A DNA stretch of 29,053 nt from a virus: the IMG/VR virus record IMGVR_UViG_3300006641_000125, positions 1 through 29,053 of that record; one strand, given 5' to 3'. The notes beneath the pieces were generated by a model. The model worked only from the letters and a program-made list of their open reading frames with translations, was not told where the DNA came from and ran no database searches. Positions 14,925-24,140 of this stretch are shown here, in pieces (within the stretch, counting starts at the first letter, position 1; each line of letters opens with the position of its first letter). Position numbers and translations under genes: made by a program.

Positions 14925-16901
14925 TTATTCGTTTTCGCTTACAGGATTTGCTTTTGCCGCGAATTCATCGTGCAAAGCGCGGTATCCCTTAGCAAGAACT
15001 GGGTCGGTTGTCGCTTCGGCCTTTGCCTTATAGGTAAGTGCCTTAACGAGATATTCATTTGTCTTTGCAACAGTTGCGCTAGATGTGCGCTTAGGCCCAC
15101 CTGCAACTGCTTTTGTTAGTGCCGTTGCTAGTTCGGATTCAAGTTTTATTGATTTCTCTACTGCGGCCTCTTTATCCGCTTGCAAAGTTGCAATCTCTGC
15201 TTTTACCGATTCCATAGCACTCTTAACGGCTTTTTCAACAACATCTTCAATAGATGGTGTTTCATCTGCTACTTCTTCAGTAGCAGAAACTTCTTCAGCA
15301 ACAACTTCGGTTGCTTCAGCAACTTCTTCAATTGCTTCTACTGCATCTGCATCTGCCGACTTTTCAACGTCATCTTCATCTGCATCTGCATCTTTATCTG
15401 AACACTTGCAATCAGCCATAGCCTTATTGCACTTGTCGCATTTTTCGCCAACTGCGATTTCGCGCTGTTCGTCATCGTTTGCGGCTTTTTCTTCAACGAT
15501 TTCTTCAACAACTTCGCCTTCGGCTTCTTCGCCTTCGTACCATGCTTTTAGGTGTCCGATTGCTTCAAGAAGGTGCGAAATTGAAAATGTTTCGTCATGG
15601 CCTTCTTTGATTTCGCCCGCTTCAATACTGATTAAATCAGCGAGCGCGGCCATTGCTTCTTCATACTTTGCTTTATCAAACTTTACTGAATCGGCGTTCA
15701 AAGATTTCGCCAATTCTGTAATCTGCTTAATTGTTTCCATCTTTGTTCCTTTGTCGGTTGTTAGTGCCTTTTCTGATTTAGGGTCATAACCCCATTCAAG
15801 CCATGAATTACCTTCGGTGAAAATATCGCTTGCTTTTACTTCAAGCGACACAATCTTGTAATCACCATTTAATGCGCCTTCACCATGTGCTTCGGCATAT
15901 TCTTTAAATGGTGTTACCCAATCACCACGATTAATTCCACCCTTAGCATCGCTAGGAATTGCGCGGTAAACTTCAACTTTTGCATTAGGCTTGCCCTGCA
16001 TTTCACGGATTAATTCATGCGCTTTTGCATCTAATCCGCCGCGATGTCCTGTGCCGTAAATGTGTTCTCCCTTATCAGAATAAACATCATCAGGATAAAT
16101 TCCATTTGCGGTTAAATCATGTAACGGTGCATCATTTTCGCGTGTAGGTGCATCATGGAAACCTTCGTAATCATTTTTTGTACTTTCGGCATTAGCATTT
16201 TGACTATTGCCCCATCGTTCTTGTGCTTCAAGATGTTGTTTTGAACCTTCGCCGTGCATTTCTCTTGCAAACTCTATTCGTTGCGCATTGCTAGGCCCTG
16301 TTTTTGGGTCAATAGAATGAAATGAACGTTCGCCACTTCCACTATTTCCCCCGCCGCTACCTTCAGAAAATCGGCCCTGCTCATCGTGGTTTTCGTTGTA
16401 CTTTTCAATAACTTCTTCAACTTGAACTAAACTTGATTCGCCTTCTACTGCTTTAGCAAGAATCAATTTTGCAGATGGGTTAGCAGGTCTATCTACTAAA
16501 GATACTTCAATGATTTGACCGCCGACAATACGACCATTAACTGCCTTTGCATCACGGATAACACGCGGTGCTTTGATGCCTACTGAAAAACCCTGATATA
16601 CGCCTGTTTCAACTTTTTTAGCGGCTAATGGGTCTACAACATGAACACCGATGTAATGGCCATCTGACTTTGCTTCATATTCTTTAGCAACACCTGCGGC
16701 GCTTGGGCCATGCATCTCACGAATGTTTCCACCTGATTTAAACCATTGTGGCATTGCTTCATCAAGCCATTTTGGGTCGCAAATTTGCGAATCTAAATCA
16801 AGCGTATCGTCTGTTGCCTTTCCGAATACCATAAGTGTACCGTCATCGTTTTTATCGTATTTAACGATTGCGGCATAACTTGTTGCGTAATCCATCGCCA
16901 T
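14925..16901 (-). CDS. Prohead protease - ADP-ribosyltransferase-like - scaffold fusion
   Basis: 658 residues in three parts. Residues 1-150 resemble a prohead serine protease (His64 in REMHGPS, Ser134 in IEVSLVDRPANPSAKL). A flexible linker (KYNENHDEQGRFSEGSGGG, 168-186) leads to residues about 255-375, which look like an ADP-ribosyltransferase: Arg313 in VEVYRA, GDWVTPFKEYAEAHGE at 326-341, and Glu369 in WLEWGYD. Residues 380-658 are long, acidic and coiled-coil (Glu/Ala-rich) like scaffold proteins, with a zinc-binding-like Cys cluster (488, 491, 498, 500). Proteases cut heads during maturation, so the middle domain could be released inside the capsid. The protease and scaffold roles are well supported by position. 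The ART call rests on a few key residues and on recall of the family. Confidence 0.75.
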   Translation of the reverse strand: MAMDYATSYAAIVKYDKNDDGTLMVFGKATDDTLDLDSQICDPKWLDEAMPQWFKSGGNIREMHGPSAAGVAKEYEAKSDGHYIGVHVVDPLAAKKVETGVYQGFSVGIKAPRVIRDAKAVNGRIVGGQIIEVSLVDRPANPSAKLILAKAVEGESSLVQVEEVIEKYNENHDEQGRFSEGSGGGNSGSGERSFHSIDPKTGPSNAQRIEFAREMHGEGSKQHLEAQERWGNSQNANAESTKNDYEGFHDAPTRENDAPLHDLTANGIYPDDVYSDKGEHIYGTGHRGGLDAKAHELIREMQGKPNAKVEVYRAIPSDAKGGINRGDWVTPFKEYAEAHGEGALNGDYKIVSLEVKASDIFTEGNSWLEWGYDPKSEKALTTDKGTKMETIKQITELAKSLNADSVKFDKAKYEEAMAALADLISIEAGEIKEGHDETFSISHLLEAIGHLKAWYEGEEAEGEVVEEIVEEKAANDDEQREIAVGEKCDKCNKAMADCKCSDKDADADEDDVEKSADADAVEAIEEVAEATEVVAEEVSATEEVADETPSIEDVVEKAVKSAMESVKAEIATLQADKEAAVEKSIKLESELATALTKAVAGGPKRTSSATVAKTNEYLVKALTYKAKAEATTDPVLAKGYRALHDEFAAKANPVSENE

Positions 16902-17021
16902 TTAGTTCTCCTTAACTGCGGATTTTGAATTTTTAATTACTTCTAATTTACCGTTTACTATTTTACCTTTTTCAAGTTTTCCATTTACTAAACGGTAATA
17001 TTCATATTCCATAGGTTTCAT
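16902..17021 (-). CDS. 39-residue protein with duplicated VNGKLE unit
   Basis: The ATG at 17021 overlaps the stop of the ART-like gene (TAATG) and has AGGGG upstream. The basic product contains the unit VNGKLE twice (RLVNGKLEKGK then IVNGKLEVIK), a likely beta-hairpin duplication, and ends NSKSAVKEN. Its stop abuts the next start (TAAATG), and the AAGGAG serving that gene is inside its last codons. It lies between two effector-bearing genes. It is too short for a typical immunity protein, and its function is unknown. Confidence 0.6.
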   Translation of the reverse strand: MKPMEYEYYRLVNGKLEKGKIVNGKLEVIKNSKSAVKEN

Positions 17022-17923
17022 TACTTGCCCCTAATAATTAATGCGGAAGTATTGTAAATAACGTAATCGCCTTTTGCGCTACTTTCTGCGGTGGATTCAT
17101 AAGCACCAACTCCACTAGCCGCAATACCAACATATTCTGCGCGTTCTTTTCCACTCCATTTTGAAGGCAAAGGATTTTTTGGAACTTGTGTAATGTTTGG
17201 CGCTTTATCCATCATTGATTTAGGCGCAAGCATTGTTACAACTTCTTTGCCGCCAGTTTGCATATTAGATAATTCTGCAAAACTTTGAGCGCGTGAAGCA
17301 TCGGTTGTTACATAAGTACCTGGGCCAGCATTGCCATCGCCAATCCACGGTTTACCCGATGTAAGGCCTTCAGTAAGACCTTCAGGGCCACCACGGAATA
17401 TTTCTACATAATCACCTGATGCTTTTAACTTATCGTATTCATCAGGGCTAGCAACTAAAGATGGTTTATCCCAACCTTGTTGATGGATAATTTCACCCAT
17501 TTTATTTCTATCGGCTTCATAACTACGTTCGCCCGAAATAAATTCTTTAACATCAATTTCTTTTCCTGAAGTGGCGCGTTCTTGTGATTCTTGCGCGATA
17601 TTTGATGAACTAGCACTATCGCTATTGCCGCCCCCGTCCGTCCAACGGCCGTGGTCATCTCTTGGTTGTTCATCGCTGTATTTATTTAAATTAGAATTTA
17701 TTGATAACTTTAAATATTTTTCTGTTTCTTCTTTAGTAGAAGGAAAGATTAAATCGCTTCCTAAGAAGTACCATTCTGAAATCTTCTTAGTGGCTTTCCA
17801 TTCTGTACCATTGGGTATTTGCCACATTGATTCTTCGGTTAAAATACCTTTATCAAACGTGGCACGATATACAGCAAATACTTCGTTGTTTAATGTTTTA
17901 CCAAGAAAATACTTTGTTTCCAT
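17021..17923 (-). CDS. ADP-ribosyltransferase-like effector linked to head genes
   Basis: 300 residues. Residues 1-75 form an unknown domain (METKYFLGKTLNNEVFAVYR). A linker, KYSDEQPRDDHGRWTDGGG (81-99), has the same style as in the adjacent protease fusion. The C-terminal domain, about 120-300, has ART-like features: Arg177 in EIFRGG, GPGTYVTTDASRAQSFA (201-217), and the final DYVIYNTSALIIRG. Families with this ending (N-x-x-A-L) occur in phage head genes, usually as effector domains after MuF. I do not see a clear catalytic Glu; Glu276 in GVGAYES is one option. The gene follows the MuF gene, and AGAAGG precedes the ATG. It could be packaged with the head. ART identity is moderate. Confidence 0.6.
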   Translation of the reverse strand: METKYFLGKTLNNEVFAVYRATFDKGILTEESMWQIPNGTEWKATKKISEWYFLGSDLIFPSTKEETEKYLKLSINSNLNKYSDEQPRDDHGRWTDGGGNSDSASSSNIAQESQERATSGKEIDVKEFISGERSYEADRNKMGEIIHQQGWDKPSLVASPDEYDKLKASGDYVEIFRGGPEGLTEGLTSGKPWIGDGNAGPGTYVTTDASRAQSFAELSNMQTGGKEVVTMLAPKSMMDKAPNITQVPKNPLPSKWSGKERAEYVGIAASGVGAYESTAESSAKGDYVIYNTSALIIRGK

Positions 17924-17940: not shown

Positions 17941-19422
17941 TTACTTAGCCTTCGGCGGTGTTTTTAATGTATCGGAAATTTCCTTCATTTTCTTGTACAG
18001 TAATAACGCTTCAGGGCTATTAGCATCTAAAACACGATATTTTTCATACATCTTGTGAATCACGTCTTTAACTTGTAAAGATTCAGGTGTATGGAACTGT
18101 AATTCAACCTTTTCACCTGTTGGGCTAGTTAAGGCTACGTTTACACCCTTGTATGAAGAATTCATTTCCCAATAGTTTTTAACTCTTGCCTTGTAGCCAA
18201 GTTTTTCCAACATTCCAACTGCTTCATCAACTACCGTCATGTAATTAGCAGGATTTGATAGCATCGTATAGCGCGTTGCATCGCTTACGTTTTGTGTTGC
18301 ACGAACTAGGTTACCATCAAAACTATTAACTGCATCTAAAAGAATCTTACGCTTTAATGAATCAGCGCCTTTAAGTCTAAACTCTAATCCGCTTAGGTCA
18401 GCGCCAACTTTATCGGCTATTACCTTCATTGTACTTGTAATAGCAGGTTCAGCGTTCTTTGCTCGGTTTTGAACTTTGCTTACAAGTTCATCAACGCTAT
18501 TTGCTTCCATGTAAGATTCAACATCTGCTTCATCAATGTTGTTAGTAACCGATTCCCTAGTAGGTAAATCAGTTTCTTCTAGCGAAACATCTTCAGGTAA
18601 ATCTTCAGGTATATCTTCTTCAGATATATCTTCTTCAGGCAAATCTTCGTAGTATGGTGTGAGCGTACACATACAATTTGGGTGCGCAGGTGGTTCTGCA
18701 TCGCCACTTGGAAAAGTATCACCAATGCCGATAGGAGAAGCATCTGCATTTTCTTGGCAAATATCGCAATTGCCTTCTTCGCCAAACACCCATTGAACTT
18801 GTTGAATATTATCTTTTTCGTATCTATCGCGGCTTGCAACAGATACAGCACGGGCGGTTTCTGTACGGGCAATAACCATTGCCGCTTCAGGGTCATCAAT
18901 AACCGTATCAATCATTTGAGCGGTTTCTCTTGCGCCATAACCTTTTTTAAGTGAAGTCGCAAGCGCTGTGCCAATACGATTTAATTTTGTATTAATAACT
19001 TCGTCAGCAATGCTAATTCTTCTACTATCTAGCAAAGAACGCAAACTGCCTGGGCGTTCTACTAATGCCGCCGCAGATTCATTACCTGGTTTCCATGTAG
19101 ACCAATCAACAACGCCTACTGATACAGGTTTTGCATCTTTCTTTAAACCTGCCAGGCGCGCCTTAGCGACACGAACTCCGAACGCATAGCCATCTGCATA
19201 AATGCTTGCAAGCGCATTTTGCATTGGTTTCTTGTTTGCTATGACGTGAGTACGCGCCCAATCTCTAGCCATTTGTGGCGAAACTGGGCCACCTGCGGGG
19301 TGGGTTTCTGCCCATGATTGAGCGATTGCATCACCATTCATTGAAACATTGAACGCTTTGCGAACCCTGGTTGCATTTTTTGCAATCAGTTTTTCCTGAT
19401 AGCGCCTTTCAGCCCATCTCAT
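17941..19422 (-). CDS. MuF minor head protein fused to a RelA/SpoT-like synthetase domain
   Basis: 493 residues. Residues about 140-257 are a MuF (SPP1 gp7-like) domain: IARTETARAVSVASRDRYEK, then a Cys/His zinc-like cluster ending HPNCMCTLTPYY. Residues 258-295 are an acidic linker with repeated EEDI/PED units. Residues about 310-465 carry the order of motifs of (p)ppGpp synthetases: FRLKGADSLKRKI (347-360), SDATRYT (Asp381, Arg384), KNYWEMNSSYKGVN (415-428), and VELQFHT (Glu440, Gln442). MuF proteins sit in or near the portal inside the head and can carry toxin domains. The fusion suggests an alarmone-type or nucleotide pyrophosphokinase effector delivered at infection. The enzyme call rests on motif order; activity is unknown. 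Confidence 0.82.
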   Translation of the reverse strand: MRWAERRYQEKLIAKNATRVRKAFNVSMNGDAIAQSWAETHPAGGPVSPQMARDWARTHVIANKKPMQNALASIYADGYAFGVRVAKARLAGLKKDAKPVSVGVVDWSTWKPGNESAAALVERPGSLRSLLDSRRISIADEVINTKLNRIGTALATSLKKGYGARETAQMIDTVIDDPEAAMVIARTETARAVSVASRDRYEKDNIQQVQWVFGEEGNCDICQENADASPIGIGDTFPSGDAEPPAHPNCMCTLTPYYEDLPEEDISEEDIPEDLPEDVSLEETDLPTRESVTNNIDEADVESYMEANSVDELVSKVQNRAKNAEPAITSTMKVIADKVGADLSGLEFRLKGADSLKRKILLDAVNSFDGNLVRATQNVSDATRYTMLSNPANYMTVVDEAVGMLEKLGYKARVKNYWEMNSSYKGVNVALTSPTGEKVELQFHTPESLQVKDVIHKMYEKYRVLDANSPEALLLYKKMKEISDTLKTPPKAK

Positions 19423-19423
19423 G

Positions 19424-21250
19424 TTACAGGCCTAGATAATGTTCAGCGTACCAACGTGCGCTATCTATATCTTTTGTTTCAACAAACTTGTTTAAAACTT
19501 CAGCATAAGTTTCATCTAATGCTTTAAATTCAAACGGGCGATTGTGTACACCCTTGCGAATCCAGCGAATAAACTTTTTTACTTCTTCTTCTGCCGCATC
19601 TTTTGGTTTTTCTTCAACAGGCGTTTCTGTTGTTGATGTATCTTCAGCGCCTAAATCGCCCATCATGCTCATTGGGTCTACCGCAGGTTGCAATCCTTCA
19701 GCACCGAAGAAATAAACGCCATTACCTGCAACAATCATTGGCATATCTGCTTCAGGTGTTTCTACCAATGGCAAACCTAATTCAGCGCGGGTTTCGTTAA
19801 GTGTGAATGTACCGTTCTTACGGCGAATATCATCACGCGCCGCCGCTTCTTGTGTATTTAGGCGCTCGCTTGGTGCAAGTCTAAATTCAAGTTCGCGTGG
19901 CATACCTAACCAACGATAAGACAACGCAGATAGCATTTGTGAAATCCAATTAGCAGTAGGAATGATTCCAATGTTTTCTGCGGTATCTGATTCACCTTGT
20001 TGTAATCCTGATGCGCCTAATGAACCTGAACTATTAAATCCAATTTCAGATGGAAGAACGCCAAAATGACCTGTAATTGATGCAATCAAATAGTTATCCA
20101 TTGCATCGCTAAACTTGTCTGAATATCCTTCTTCAAAGTGTAACTTGCCGCCAGGAACAAGAACGCGCAAGCGATTACGTTGTGCGGTTTGGCCTGATAG
20201 GTCATCGTTGTAAATATTTTCGTATGCTCTGATTTGGTCAGGGGTCATCGCTGTTGTTTCAGGCATTTCTAAGTATGACTTAGGCATTGTGCCATCGGTG
20301 AATTCTGAACGAATCCATTGTTGGCGGCGCAAATAAATATCCGCTAATGGCAAACAACGCTCGGTTGGCGATAATCCGTAAACAGAATTAGCGCGGCGAT
20401 TGCGTACAAAATATGCAAGTTCGTCAGATGTAAATTCACCATCTGCCGCTTCGTCATCAATACCTGCATTAAATTCAGAACGTGGGAATCCAAAAAGAAT
20501 CTGTTGGAAAGCAGGGCCAACGTGCGGTTCAGGGCGCATACCACGGTCATCTAACAACGGCTTAATTGTTGAGCCATCAAGAATTTGAAATCCGCGAATC
20601 TCGCCACCAACAGTTGATTGTGGCCATATAGCCCAAGCATCAAGCACGTCAATTTCTTCAAGTGCCATGTTTAGCCAATCAACAAATGCTAAACCGTTTT
20701 GTGGGTCGGGTGTATCCCAAAACTTTTTTAAGCGACCAATTTCAGGTGCTAATGTTTCACGCGCTTTTGCAAGTGCTTGTAAATGATTTCCACCTGATTC
20801 AGCAATGATGCGTTCTGTTGCCGCTTCGCTAAGAACAATATCCCATTGCAAACCTGTTAGTTTTGCTTTGCGTACTTCAATGCATCGGCGAACAATATCC
20901 ACCTGGTCTGCAACGCCACGCAAAGTTTTAAATGGAACTAAACGATTATCAGAAACATTGATGTTCTGCGCAACTTGAAATTCATAACGGCGTGGGTCAG
21001 GGCGGCCAGTATCTTCACGCAATGGGTTAATTGCGCCAGGATAAATTGGCATACCTGGGGCAAATGGAACGTTTGCCAATGCAGGGCTACGCGGCAATGC
21101 GGTACTTACGTTTGCACCATATTGCGTTTGTGCAATACCTGCAACGCTTTGCATCTGTTGCATAGACATTGTGCCAGCACCAGCAGGGAGATTTGGCGCT
21201 TTTACAATTTCATCTGCAACGCGCTTTGCGAAACGGTCAAACAAACCCAT
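19424..21250 (-). CDS. Portal protein
   Basis: 608 residues, the typical size. The N-terminus is Gln/Ala-rich. From about residue 105 there is a portal-like core (FKTLRGVADQVDIVRRCIEV at 107-126, then RKAKLTGLQWDIVL). A middle block has DELAYFVRNRRANSVYG and LADIYLRRQQWIRSEF, and a helix-rich region contains GFNSSGSLGASGLQQGES near the end of the core. The acidic tail (EEKPKDAAEEEVKKF) is followed by a WIRKGVHNRPFEFKALD segment. The portal forms the DNA entry dodecamer and is followed by the MuF gene, as in many phages. GGGAG precedes the ATG at 21250. It is the first gene of the leftward head-tail unit; only 29 bases separate it from the plus-strand cassette. Confidence 0.88.
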   Translation of the reverse strand: MGLFDRFAKRVADEIVKAPNLPAGAGTMSMQQMQSVAGIAQTQYGANVSTALPRSPALANVPFAPGMPIYPGAINPLREDTGRPDPRRYEFQVAQNINVSDNRLVPFKTLRGVADQVDIVRRCIEVRKAKLTGLQWDIVLSEAATERIIAESGGNHLQALAKARETLAPEIGRLKKFWDTPDPQNGLAFVDWLNMALEEIDVLDAWAIWPQSTVGGEIRGFQILDGSTIKPLLDDRGMRPEPHVGPAFQQILFGFPRSEFNAGIDDEAADGEFTSDELAYFVRNRRANSVYGLSPTERCLPLADIYLRRQQWIRSEFTDGTMPKSYLEMPETTAMTPDQIRAYENIYNDDLSGQTAQRNRLRVLVPGGKLHFEEGYSDKFSDAMDNYLIASITGHFGVLPSEIGFNSSGSLGASGLQQGESDTAENIGIIPTANWISQMLSALSYRWLGMPRELEFRLAPSERLNTQEAAARDDIRRKNGTFTLNETRAELGLPLVETPEADMPMIVAGNGVYFFGAEGLQPAVDPMSMMGDLGAEDTSTTETPVEEKPKDAAEEEVKKFIRWIRKGVHNRPFEFKALDETYAEVLNKFVETKDIDSARWYAEHYLGL

Positions 21251-21279
21251 TGTTATCTCCCTATTGGTATTGTTGTCTT

Positions 21280-22287
21280 ATGAATTTAGTGATGAAGGCT
21301 ATTAATAGCGGTGGCGTTTTAGCACCGCTTGTAATTCCTGAAGGTTTAACATCGGGAACTGGTTTAATGAATCCATCAATTTTTATTGATGATGATGGCG
21401 ATATTCTTGTGAATCTTCGTCATGTGAACTATACATTAGTTCATTCTGAAGCGGGTCAAAAATTTCCGTCTAGGTGGGGGCCGCTAACTTATCTTCACCC
21501 TGAGAAAGACCAACGATTAGTTACTGAAAACTATCTATGCCGTCTTAATCAAGATTTAGAAATGACCGACTTTGCCCGTGTTGAAATGCTTGATTTGCAC
21601 AAACCCATTTGGGAATTTCATGGGCTTGAAGATTGCCGATTAGTTCGTTGGGAAGGCGCGCTTTATTTGATTGGCGTTCGCCGCGATACTACTGATAACG
21701 GACAAGGCCGCATGGAATATTCCAATGTTGTTTTAGATAAAAACAAATGGACAGTTAAGGAAGTTGGTCGTAAGCGTATTCCTGCACCTGCGCCTGATGA
21801 TTCATATTGCGAAAAGAATTGGTATCCTGTTTTGGATAAACCATTTACTTTTATCAAATGGTCATGCCCTACTGAAGTTATATTCCATGACCCAAACGAA
21901 TTAGATAATCCTAATAATGAAACAATCCAACTTGCCTTACGCGCTTGCGAAATGCCACAAAAAGACCAACGCGGTTCATCGCAGTTAATCCGTTGGGGCA
22001 ATATGTATATTGCTATTACCCATGAAGTTGATTTATTTAAAAACTACTTAGGGCAAAAAGATGCAATTTATCGCCATCGTTTAGTTATTTGGGATACTGA
22101 ATATAACCTTGCGGGTATGTCTAAGCCGTTCAGTTTTCTTGATGGCAATATTGAATTCTGCGTAGGTGCGGCCAAACAGGGCGATGATTTGCTGTTATCC
22201 TTCGGTTTCCAAGATAATGCCGCTTTTGTGCTTCGCGTTCCTAAGCCGATTGTGGAAGAATTAATCTTGGAAGCGTTGGAAGGCTAA
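21280..22287 (+). CDS. GH130-like five-bladed beta-propeller glycan enzyme
   Basis: 335 residues from the ATG at 21280. An in-frame reading from 21169 would enter the portal gene and is less likely, although no clear Shine-Dalgarno site precedes 21280. Motifs are those of GH43/GH130-type propellers and their virus relatives: LMNPSIFIDDDGDILVNLRH, RHVNYT, FHGLEDCRLVRWEGALYLIG (the Glu-Asp-x-Arg motif), CEKNWYPVLDKPFTFIKW, and a late DGNIEFCVGAA block. These proteins cleave, phosphorolyse or bind mannose-like glycosides. In giant viruses and phages related proteins sit in glycan gene clusters. Substrate and direction are unknown. It is cotranscribed with the TPR and FkbM genes. Confidence 0.65.
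   Translation: MNLVMKAINSGGVLAPLVIPEGLTSGTGLMNPSIFIDDDGDILVNLRHVNYTLVHSEAGQKFPSRWGPLTYLHPEKDQRLVTENYLCRLNQDLEMTDFARVEMLDLHKPIWEFHGLEDCRLVRWEGALYLIGVRRDTTDNGQGRMEYSNVVLDKNKWTVKEVGRKRIPAPAPDDSYCEKNWYPVLDKPFTFIKWSCPTEVIFHDPNELDNPNNETIQLALRACEMPQKDQRGSSQLIRWGNMYIAITHEVDLFKNYLGQKDAIYRHRLVIWDTEYNLAGMSKPFSFLDGNIEFCVGAAKQGDDLLLSFGFQDNAAFVLRVPKPIVEELILEALEG
21307..21329. promoter_or_regulatory. Inverted repeat near the divergent gene starts
   Basis: AGCGGTG and CACCGCT form seven-base arms around a nine-base centre, 27 bases into the plus-strand gene and about 57 bases upstream of the portal ATG. It could be an operator for the leftward portal promoter or an early hairpin in the rightward mRNA. It shares TTAGCACCG with the palindrome at 1915-1933. 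Chance is possible. Confidence 0.35.
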
Positions 22288-22288
22288 T

Positions 22289-22861
22289 ATGGATAAATTA
22301 CCTAATCTAATACATAGATTATCACAAGACCCGTTTAATTACTTACTTAATTTTGATGTGGCGCAAAAATATTTAGAATTAAATCAAACTGCATCTGCCG
22401 TATCGTTTTATTTGCGTTGTGCCGAATATGGCGAAAACGTAGTTGGTGCTAAACGATATGTTTATTCATCGCTATTGGCGATTGCTAAATGTTTTGATAC
22501 TCAAAAGGGTCGTGAATTATCAGTTAGCAATACCTTACTTCAGGCTATTGCCTATGATGATTCTCGCCCTGAAGCCTATTTTATGCTTTCTAACTATTAC
22601 GAGCGCGCAAGTCAATGGCAAGAATGTTATACGTTTGCTGTATTAGGTTTAGGTTGGTCGTATGAACAAGAAGAACAATTAGTAGATATTGGTTACGATG
22701 GCGAATATTGCTTACGCTTTGAAAAGGCTGTATCGGCTTATTGGATAGGCCGTAAAGATGAATCGCTTGAACTATTTAAGCAATTATCTACCGAAAGTAT
22801 ATTGCCGCATTATGCTAATGCTGTTAAATACAATTTGGAGAAATTAAATGCTGGCATTTGA
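22289..22861 (+). CDS. TPR-like helical repeat protein in the glycan cassette
   Basis: 190 residues, all helical. Repeat-like units carry the TPR pattern (small residue, then Tyr/Ala): FDVAQKYLELNQTASAVSFY, then a helix pair around DDSRPEAYFMLSNYYERASQ, and a third around EKAVSAYWIGRKDESLELF. TPR proteins mediate protein-protein contacts and are often linked to glycosyltransferases and polysaccharide modification. No catalytic motif is seen. GGAAGG lies just upstream of the ATG, two bases after the previous stop, and its 3' end overlaps the FkbM start by 14 bases. It is probably an accessory subunit of the glycan-modifying set. Confidence 0.65.
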   Translation: MDKLPNLIHRLSQDPFNYLLNFDVAQKYLELNQTASAVSFYLRCAEYGENVVGAKRYVYSSLLAIAKCFDTQKGRELSVSNTLLQAIAYDDSRPEAYFMLSNYYERASQWQECYTFAVLGLGWSYEQEEQLVDIGYDGEYCLRFEKAVSAYWIGRKDESLELFKQLSTESILPHYANAVKYNLEKLNAGI

Positions 22862-23507
22862 TATAGGCGCTAATCGTGGTGATTGGACATACGCGGCGCT
22901 TGCTAAAGGCTATGATGTTGTTGCGTTAGAACCTGCATCAATCTTTAAGCAATTAGCCAAAAACTTTATTTACGATAATCGTGTTACGCCGCTTAAATAT
23001 GCGGTAAGCATGAACGACTATGATGCGGTGGAATTTTATGAAGCAGAAGAAGATGGGCTTTCTACGCTCAATAAAGATTGGCTTACTGATGAAACTATGC
23101 CTTATTGCGGCAAGCCGTTCAAACAGGTTCTTGCTACAACTATTACGCTGGACACTTTGGCGTTAAAGTATGGCAAACCTGATTTAGTTAAGATTGACGT
23201 GGAAGGGGGCGAATGGCACGTTTTCAAAGGTATGTCTAGTTACATGGGAACAATTGCCTTTGAATGGACAGATGCCACAATAGACCAACACCAACTACAA
23301 CTTGAATACCTTATGCATGGCAATTACAAATTAGTTGCGCCGCAATTCATAGTTAATCATTGTGAAGAACCTAATGAATGGTTTGATATTCGCACATTTG
23401 ATTTAGCCCAATGGGTTGCAGATAATTCTGCGGATTGGATTAATGGCGGTTGGAAAGTAGCGGGGCTACGACCTACTGCCGATGTTGGAATGTTATGGGT
23501 TCGTTAA
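22848..23507 (+). CDS. FkbM family SAM-dependent methyltransferase
   Basis: 219 residues. It has the SAM-binding motif FDIGANRGDW (4-13) and the acidic post-motif LEP (27-29), and the FkbM signature DLVKIDVEGGEWHVFKG (112-128). FkbM enzymes methylate hydroxyls on sugars or polyketides. In a phage next to GH130-like and glycosyltransferase genes, a methylated glycan on a fibre, capsid or host surface is likely, though the target is not visible. GGAG precedes the start. The last 15 bases overlap the converging glycosyltransferase gene on the other strand. It is the end of the plus-strand cassette. Confidence 0.88.
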   Translation: MLAFDIGANRGDWTYAALAKGYDVVALEPASIFKQLAKNFIYDNRVTPLKYAVSMNDYDAVEFYEAEEDGLSTLNKDWLTDETMPYCGKPFKQVLATTITLDTLALKYGKPDLVKIDVEGGEWHVFKGMSSYMGTIAFEWTDATIDQHQLQLEYLMHGNYKLVAPQFIVNHCEEPNEWFDIRTFDLAQWVADNSADWINGGWKVAGLRPTADVGMLWVR

Positions 23508-24140
23508 TCGCTCAATAAATGAATTGAAATCGCCTTGAAATTTTAACGCGCCTACATGATTACAAGTATAAACAGGGTTGATATACACGCCAAATTTTTC
23601 TAACTTTTGGCAAAGTAATACATCTTCGCTAATAATGTCGTTGTCTTGTATTTTGACTTCAAACACCCAACGGCGTTCTTGTTCATTATGAATATAAGGT
23701 GTTGAAGTTTCCCATAAGTAATCAATGGCTTCTTTGCTCATATACAAAAAACCTGTACCTACTGATTCAACTTTAATCAAACCATCTTCATCTTTGATTA
23801 AATCTTCAGGTTTGCATTTAACATTGTATTGTTCGGCGATTGACTTTTTAATACAAGGCAAGCCGATTACATCTTTGCCCGAATTGACTAACTCAATAGC
23901 CCAATTAGCCGCCCATTCAATATCACTATCAATCCATAAAATGCCGTCAAATTCATTTTCTTTAGCAATTGCCAATAGGTCATTGCGGCTTCTTTGAATT
24001 AACGCATCATAAGACATAAAGATTGGTTTGAAATAAATATCATTATCAAAACCCGCTATTACTGTTTCCAGCAATGCATTTGTGTACCATACATCTAAAC
24101 GCCCGTCATAAGACGGTGTTGCTATTAAAACGTTTTTCAT
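23493..24140 (-). CDS. GT-A fold glycosyltransferase
   Basis: 215 residues. It has a nucleotide-sugar-binding start (ATPSYDGRLDVWYTNALLET), a catalytic region ILWIDSDIEW with an Asp-Ser-Asp metal-binding motif at 71-73, a VGTGFLYMSKEA block (127-138), an acidic SED at 171-173 and a late His in YTCNHVGA (191-198). This is the GT-A pattern of small phage glycosyltransferases. It has no membrane segment and probably acts in the cytoplasm. It is transcribed with the long fibre gene but is separated by a 97-residue gene, so fibre glycosylation is one hypothesis. AGGAAGG precedes the start. It converges with the FkbM gene. Confidence 0.82.
   Translation of the reverse strand: MKNVLIATPSYDGRLDVWYTNALLETVIAGFDNDIYFKPIFMSYDALIQRSRNDLLAIAKENEFDGILWIDSDIEWAANWAIELVNSGKDVIGLPCIKKSIAEQYNVKCKPEDLIKDEDGLIKVESVGTGFLYMSKEAIDYLWETSTPYIHNEQERRWVFEVKIQDNDIISEDVLLCQKLEKFGVYINPVYTCNHVGALKFQGDFNSFIERLTNP

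What the first reader, a model, noticed from the sequence alone, without database searches (positions are those of the whole stretch)
14925..16901. Protease, ART-like domain and scaffold in a single polypeptide
Prohead proteases and scaffolds are often fused, but an enzyme-like domain inserted between them means the maturation protease itself would set it free in the head. Key features are Arg313, GDWVT and Glu369. The insertion sits behind a Gly/Ser linker of the phage effector type.
Basis: partly seen in the sequence, partly recalled or inferred. Interest (0 to 1): 0.75.

Follow-up and report, generated by a model that had tools for sequence, protein, structure and literature searches.

The report
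Swappable enzyme cassette inside capsid protease
A virus of bacteria carries a predicted ADP-ribosyltransferase-like enzyme as a removable cassette between its capsid-maturation protease and its capsid scaffold, which suggests the enzyme is packed into the virus head, cut loose there and delivered into the next cell with the DNA.

Summary
The 658-aa ORF (minus strand, 14925-16901) is an S78-type prohead protease (res 1-163; H64/S106/E132 invariant in 51 relatives), a KYNENHDEQGRFSEGSGGG linker, an ART-like domain (243-379) and a scaffold (388-658). The middle domain is neither disordered nor a scaffold element: a confident model retrieves almost only ART-superfamily structures, though weakly (best Z 4.8). 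Its family exceeds 500 viral loci, has no Pfam/NCBIfam model, and keeps R313, the GDWV[T/S] strand and E369. Ten close relatives share protease and scaffold (protease 79-92% identical) but lack the domain, so it is an accessory cassette. A related phage (L205) carries this domain and the ART of the neighbouring ORF (17021-17923) together on its MuF head protein. In 51 linker-bearing proteins the linker joins head carriers (portal, MuF, proteases) to known effectors (ADPrib_exo_Tox in 8, zeta toxin in 6). Best explanation: a head-delivered ART effector cassette, known from MuF toxins, relocated to the protease-scaffold junction. Packaging, cleavage and catalysis are inferred, not shown. A Nudix fused to the capsid-processing peptidase and T4 Alt trimmed by its prohead protease are precedents: a new variant of a known kind.

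The parts
16413..16901 (-). S78-type prohead (head maturation) protease domain, residues 1-163; catalytic-type H64, S106, E132
   Evidence: phrog_21715 6.8e-32; relatives match PF04586/PF14550/phrog_80; these residues invariant in 51/51; lies between portal/MuF and the major capsid protein, order conserved in relatives
16332..16406 (-). Linker EKYNENHDEQGRFSEGSGGGNSGSG, residues 166-190
   Evidence: Same motif in 53 non-identical ORFs of fetched loci; joins head carriers to effector domains; position counts
16176..16331 (-). Spacer between linker and ART-like domain, residues 191-242, no known domain
   Evidence: Direct reading; no family hit
15765..16175 (-). ART-like domain, residues 243-379; R313, GDWVT 326-330, E369
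   Evidence: phrog_2579 7.6e-35; AF2 mean pLDDT 87.8, core 90-98; VIA-align rows almost all ART superfamily, best Z 4.8; conserved residues
15741..15752 (-). Shine-Dalgarno-like AAAGGAACAAAG directly before an in-frame internal ATG (M388)
   Evidence: AAAGG-type stretch before the same ATG in 14 of 15 sequences, AAAGAG in L002; lowered synonymous diversity. Suggestive only
14928..15740 (-). Scaffold region, residues 388-658: acidic C-terminal part
   Evidence: Conserved in all relatives regardless of the insert; position between protease and major capsid protein. Scaffold role inferred
17021..17923 (-). Neighbouring ORF (300 aa): N-terminal domain, linker YSDEQPRDDHGRWTDGGG, and a second, different ART-fold domain (residues 102-300, ART2)
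   Evidence: AF2 pLDDT 82.4; Foldseek/VIA: ExoA/cholix/ParT/PARP, Z up to 6.6; fused to MuF in L201, L203, L205, L207
17941..19422 (-). MuF minor head protein; C-terminal part resembles a RelA/SpoT-type synthetase (by eye)
   Evidence: PF04233 5.4e-9; C-terminal part is a separate linker-bearing ORF in L201 and a linker-bearing module in L044

Best explanation
The middle region is a linker-tagged effector cassette with an ART-like fold, relocated from the usual head carriers (MuF, portal, free ORFs beside them) to the junction between an S78 prohead protease and its scaffold. Step 1 (shown): the cassette is accessory and modular. Step 2 (inferred): protease-ART-scaffold chains co-assemble into the procapsid through the scaffold part, while scaffold alone may be made in excess from the internal start M388. 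Step 3 (inferred): during maturation the protease trims itself and the scaffold, freeing the ART domain inside the head, comparable to T4 Alt, which the T4 prohead protease trims at both ends. Step 4 (inferred): the ART is ejected with the DNA and uses NAD+ to modify a host macromolecule, or hydrolyses NAD+, early in infection (host takeover or counter-defence). The target is unknown.
For: Fold: confident model; VIA second look returns 22 chains with Z of 2 or more, almost all of the ART superfamily by name (KptA/Tpt1, CNFy 576-684, Vis, TreTu, cholera toxin, ExoS, Plx2a, IcmQ), best Z 4.8; Foldseek's top rows include ExoS, cholera toxin, Tse6, ART2.2. Putative active-site residues conserved: R313 and E369 37/37, T330 T/S 37/37. 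Modularity: ten close relatives have the same protease and scaffold without this domain. Carriers: L205 MuF holds this domain and ART2 together while its protease-scaffold holds a different insert; L044 holds linker plus this domain (59% identical core) between MuF and protease. Linker proteins: PF03496 in 8 of 51, zeta toxin 6, MuF 7, portal families, Acb1 1. Close relative L010 has MuF fused to PF03496 (1.8e-20) and L114 has portal-linker-PF03496. The family also sits in polyvalent proteins with SLT, ART-PolyVal and LPD domains. Published: ARTs fused to MuF, and a Nudix fused to the capsid-processing peptidase (PMC9503650); Alt trimmed at both ends by gp21 (PMC5694885).
Against: No virion, cleavage or enzyme data. 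Structural scores are low (best Z 4.8; Foldseek PDB E about 1), no sequence family links it to a characterised ART, and the canonical [EQ]-x-E signature is absent (W/I two before E369). Family members in Vibrio T4-like phages lie beside replication genes and mycobacteriophage members are standalone genes outside the structural region, so the family can work without packaging. Only this phage (the window and the identical contig L001, which covers residues 250-658) shows the ART in the protease-scaffold gene; none of 50 other protease relatives scanned did. Some cassettes behind the same linker at this site look helical, not enzyme-like (L002, L107).
Confidence: 0.6

Rival explanations
1. The domain is an ART effector but is not virion-delivered: it is expressed late as part of a fusion and acts in the producing cell, the head gene being only a convenient genomic site.
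For: Standalone family members in non-structural regions: beside regA and DNA polymerase in Vibrio phage VH7D and in mycobacteriophage IHOP.
Against: In-frame fusion to scaffold and protease, MuF placement in L205, linker association with portal, MuF and proteases, and presence in polyvalents with a transglycosylase domain all point to virion carriers.
Confidence: 0.2
2. The insert is a catalytically dead ART-like binding module (for NAD+, nucleic acid or capsid) used in head assembly or DNA condensation.
For: Low structural similarity to active ARTs; no [EQ]-x-E motif; other inserts at the same junction are small modules such as DUF6582, DUF5872 and DnaJ-type zinc fingers.
Against: Conservation of R313, T/S330, E369 and of Y335/H339 in 37 diverse members; relatives do without it; co-occurrence with clear effectors.
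Confidence: 0.15
3. The fusion is an assembly artefact joining separate genes.
For: The window is a metagenomic virus contig of 29 kb with no completeness estimate.
Against: One continuous open frame; independent contig L001 is identical over residues 250-658; the same protease-linker-insert-scaffold layout occurs with other inserts in L002, L107 and L112 from other samples.
Confidence: 0.02

Closest known systems
MuF polymorphic toxins (PMC5576092) and MuF-ART fusions (PMC9503650; VIP2-MuF in Microbacterium phages, PMC7302621)
   Same: Head-protein carrier plus effector, ART and RelA-like effectors frequent; a relative of this phage carries this very domain on MuF
   Different: Here the carrier is the prohead protease-scaffold protein and the effector is internal, between two assembly functions; the ART-like family has no curated model
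T4 Alt (head-packaged ART trimmed by the gp21 prohead protease at both ends, PMC5694885)
   Same: ART in the head, proposed to be freed by the maturation protease and ejected
   Different: Alt is a separate gene with propeptides; here the flanks are the protease itself and the scaffold. The domain is much smaller and not detectably homologous by sequence
[quoted passage not shown]
   Same: An NAD/ADPr enzyme fused to the maturation protease, proposed to be packaged and injected
   Different: Different enzyme class (hydrolase, not ART-like); position relative to scaffold not described in the passage read
Polyvalent phage proteins with ART-PolyVal domains (PMC5512222; PF18760)
   Same: The present family occurs inside such proteins, near ART-PolyVal and LPD domains
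   Different: Distinct sequence family with an R, T/S, E pattern rather than H, Y, D, and not matched by PF18760
Protease-scaffold-capsid and MuF-protease fusions (PMC7302621)
   Same: Protease fused to other head functions in one chain
   Different: No effector between protease and scaffold in the passages read

Membership tests
Peptidase S78 / prohead protease | Sequence homology to S78 or head-maturation-protease profiles | tested here: met
   Not directly, but transitively: phrog_21715 for the protein, and aligned relatives match PF04586 (20/51), PF14550 (18/51), phrog_80 (42/51)
Peptidase S78 / prohead protease | Conserved His-Ser-acidic catalytic residues | tested here: met
   H64, S106, E132 invariant in 51/51; their role as a triad is from knowledge of the family
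Peptidase S78 / prohead protease | Proteolysis of head proteins | not testable with these tools
   Needs biochemistry or virion proteomics
ART superfamily | ART fold | tested here: inconclusive
   Confident model that matches almost exclusively ART-fold chains, but best Z 4.8 and insignificant Foldseek E; supportive, below a firm level
ART superfamily, R-S-E clade | Arg on first strand, S/T on second, Glu on a later strand | tested here: met
   In model numbering R78 lies in strand 73-81, T95 in 93-95, E134 just before 135-137; R and E 37/37, T/S 37/37. Superposition on a solved active site not tested
ART superfamily, R-S-E clade | [EQ]-x-E signature of many protein-modifying members | tested here: not met
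   Position two before E369 is mostly I, W or L
ART superfamily | NAD+-dependent activity | not testable with these tools
   Needs an enzyme assay
ART-PolyVal PF18760 / ADPrib_exo_Tox PF03496 | Match to the curated model | tested here: not met
   None of 37 family members matched any ART model in Pfam or NCBIfam
MuF polymorphic toxin | MuF domain N-terminal to the toxin | tested here: not met
   Carrier here is a protease; the same domain is on MuF in L205, so it may work like one without being one
MuF polymorphic toxin | Variable module behind a constant carrier | tested here: met
   Ten relatives with a near-identical protease and similar scaffold carry no insert, a helical insert or a DUF5872-type insert
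ParB (phrog_2579 label) | ParB/Srx domain | tested here: not met
   The match covers only profile positions 334-467 of 472; no ParB Pfam hit in P0001

The most novel reading that the evidence does not exclude
The KYN[EP]NHDxxGRF-(G/S) linker is a general tag of head-delivered effectors across unrelated tailed phages, acting as a capsid-targeting or maturation-cleavage element that lets cassettes hop between portal, MuF, S78 and ClpP-type proteases; in this phage the protease carries, packages and frees its own cargo while nested translation supplies plain scaffold.
Probability: 0.3. Interest if true: 0.85.

Novelty: new variant of a known kind. Interest (0 to 1): 0.64.

Why it matters
If right, capsid maturation proteases serve as delivery vehicles, and the same shuffling effector cassettes are shared by portal, MuF and protease carriers. 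The linker gives a searchable tag for finding head-delivered effectors, most of which have no annotation. It also points to a large ART-like family (over 500 viral loci) without a Pfam or NCBIfam model that is currently labelled 'ParB C-terminal domain'.

Tried and rejected
Full-length model of P0001: the mixed alignment put the ART-only rows on the protease, so it was not submitted. Genome-contig scan for the ART family found no relative; this used one narrow pattern and does not show absence from bacteria. PDB sequence searches with the protein and the profile gave nothing convincing. tblastn with the 27-aa linker against phages found nothing, as expected for so short a query. Literature search for the linker letters found no phage paper. 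'Scaffold element' rejected: relatives lack the domain. 'ParB' label rejected: only the C-terminal, non-ParB part of that profile matches. The plus-strand ORF 15085-15789 inside the gene was taken as a mechanical artefact; no family search was run on it. No prohead cleavage motif could be assigned to the linker or flanks from sequence.

Full report
Observation. The ORF at 14925-16901 lies on the minus strand and encodes 658 aa. Layout: protease 1-163, linker 166-190, spacer 191-242, ART-like domain 243-379, scaffold 388-658.

Protease. The window protein has no direct Pfam hit but hits phrog_21715 over residues 8-154. Aligned with 50 relatives from viral contigs, 20 of 51 match PF04586 Peptidase_S78, 18 match PF14550 and 42 match phrog_80 head maturation protease. 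H64, S106 and E132 are invariant. Gene order portal, MuF, (ART2 ORF), protease, major capsid protein, adaptor is kept in relatives.

Middle domain. It matches only the last part of phrog_2579, whose 'ParB' label therefore does not apply to it. Relatives occur in Vibrio, Mycobacterium, Gordonia and Rhodococcus phages and in more than 500 viral contigs, from standalone proteins of about 130-145 aa to 3,400-aa polyvalent proteins. None of 37 members matches an ART model in Pfam or NCBIfam. The AlphaFold2 model is confident. Structural neighbours are almost all ART-superfamily chains but at low scores, so 'ART-like' is well supported and 'ART' is not proven. R313, the WV[T/S] strand and E369 are conserved in all 37 sequences; the [EQ]-x-E signature is missing.

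Cassette behaviour. Ten close relatives (L002-L011; protease 79-92% identical) share the protease and the scaffold start KG[ST]KMETIKQ or a near variant. None has the ART domain: most have no insert, L002 has a different insert behind the same linker and L003 a DUF5872-like insert. L107, L112 and L115 again have the linker plus a helical region there. The two ART domains of this window, the one in the protease and the one in ORF 17021-17923, occur side by side on the MuF protein of a related phage (L205), whose protease-scaffold gene carries another insert (34% identity for the first; 62% for the second). In L044 the linker plus this domain (59% identical core) sit between MuF and the protease. 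L201, L203 and L207 show MuF-linker-ART2, followed by an ORF with a constant N-terminus, a linker and a variable effector: RelA/SpoT-like in L201 and L203, P-loop/zeta-like in L207 (read by eye). A close relative, L010, has MuF fused to PF03496 (1.8e-20), and L114 has portal-linker-PF03496.

Linker. In 51 linker-bearing ORFs, Pfam finds ADPrib_exo_Tox in 8, MuF in 7, zeta toxin in 6, three portal families in 5, 2 and 1, ART-PolyVal in 2, and one each of Acb1, ClpP protease and PARP; PHROGs lists many head and portal families. The set was gathered partly through the linker pattern itself and partly through the ART and protease searches, so these are counts, not enrichment statistics.

Second ART. 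ORF 17021-17923: model pLDDT 82.4 from five sequences. Foldseek's top rows and nearly all VIA rows shown are ARTs (ExoA, cholix, PARP, ParT, MbcT), Z up to 6.6; one row is a cyanophage A4 pre-ejectosome chain (Z 6.3).

Internal start. An AAAGG-type stretch lies just before the in-frame ATG of the scaffold in 14 of 15 sequences; mean synonymous diversity is 0.18 just before and 0.24 just after M388 against 0.39 overall, but parts of the late scaffold are lower still. This suggests, without proving, a nested scaffold product like lambda C/Nu3 (comparison from general knowledge).

Mechanism. Shown: modularity, carrier switching, conservation, fold resemblance. Inferred: incorporation through the scaffold part, release by the protease, ejection, NAD+ chemistry. 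Precedents: T4 Alt trimmed at both ends by the prohead protease (PMC5694885); NAD/ADPr enzymes fused to MuF, portal and the capsid-processing serine peptidase (PMC9503650); MuF toxins (PMC5576092). Because of these the case is a new variant of a known kind.

Noticed in passing
17021-17923 (-): Separate ORF with linker YSDEQPRDDHGRWTDGGG and a second ART-fold domain (PARP/ExoA/ParT-like, Z up to 6.6); fused to MuF in L201, L203, L205, L207.
   Followed up: yes
17941-19422 (-), residues about 313-490: MuF C-terminal part resembles a RelA/SpoT-type synthetase by eye, a class known among MuF toxins (PMC12226406); a separate linker-bearing ORF in L201 and L203.
   Followed up: partly
Fetched loci, e.g. 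L013, L044, L101, L104, L105, L108, L111, L117, L215: The K[YF]N[EP]NHDxxGRF(A/S)xGxGG linker recurs up to several times per protein, separating different effector-like domains; no paper found for the motif letters.
   Followed up: partly
L118:1722-3176: A ClpP-type head maturation protease also carries two copies of the linker with inserts behind them.
   Followed up: no
L207:3687-4460 versus L203:2630-3439 and L201:4687-5514: Same N-terminal carrier and linker followed by a P-loop/zeta-like domain in one phage and a RelA/SpoT-like domain in the others: a polymorphic-toxin pattern in a free head-region ORF.
   Followed up: partly
Linker-ORF set A9; by eye L111:1965-3884: One linker protein matches Acb1 (anti-CBASS, 1.6e-37), which would fit a counter-defence role for these cassettes; which member it is was not resolved, L111 is a guess by eye.
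   Followed up: partly
15741-15752 and M388 at 15738-15740 (-): Possible internal translation start for the scaffold; in several relatives the protease start also lies inside a longer ORF with its ribosome-binding-like site kept.
   Followed up: partly
Scaffold residues about 535-594 (window about 15120-15300): Unusually low synonymous diversity in late scaffold windows, lower than at the proposed internal start; unexplained.
   Followed up: no
L121-L180, protease-scaffold junction: The junction is a general insertion site: DnaJ-type CXXCXGXG zinc fingers, DUF6582, DUF5872, DUF5824 or nothing in different phages.
   Followed up: partly
9k3a_B residues 1275-1600 (PDB entry): ART2 model matches a cyanophage A4 pre-ejectosome chain at Z 6.3, hinting at an ART-fold domain in a solved ejection apparatus.
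   Followed up: no
21169-24140 (+ and -): FkbM methyltransferase and a glycosyltransferase-like gene lie between the portal and a 1454-aa collagen-like tail protein.
   Followed up: no
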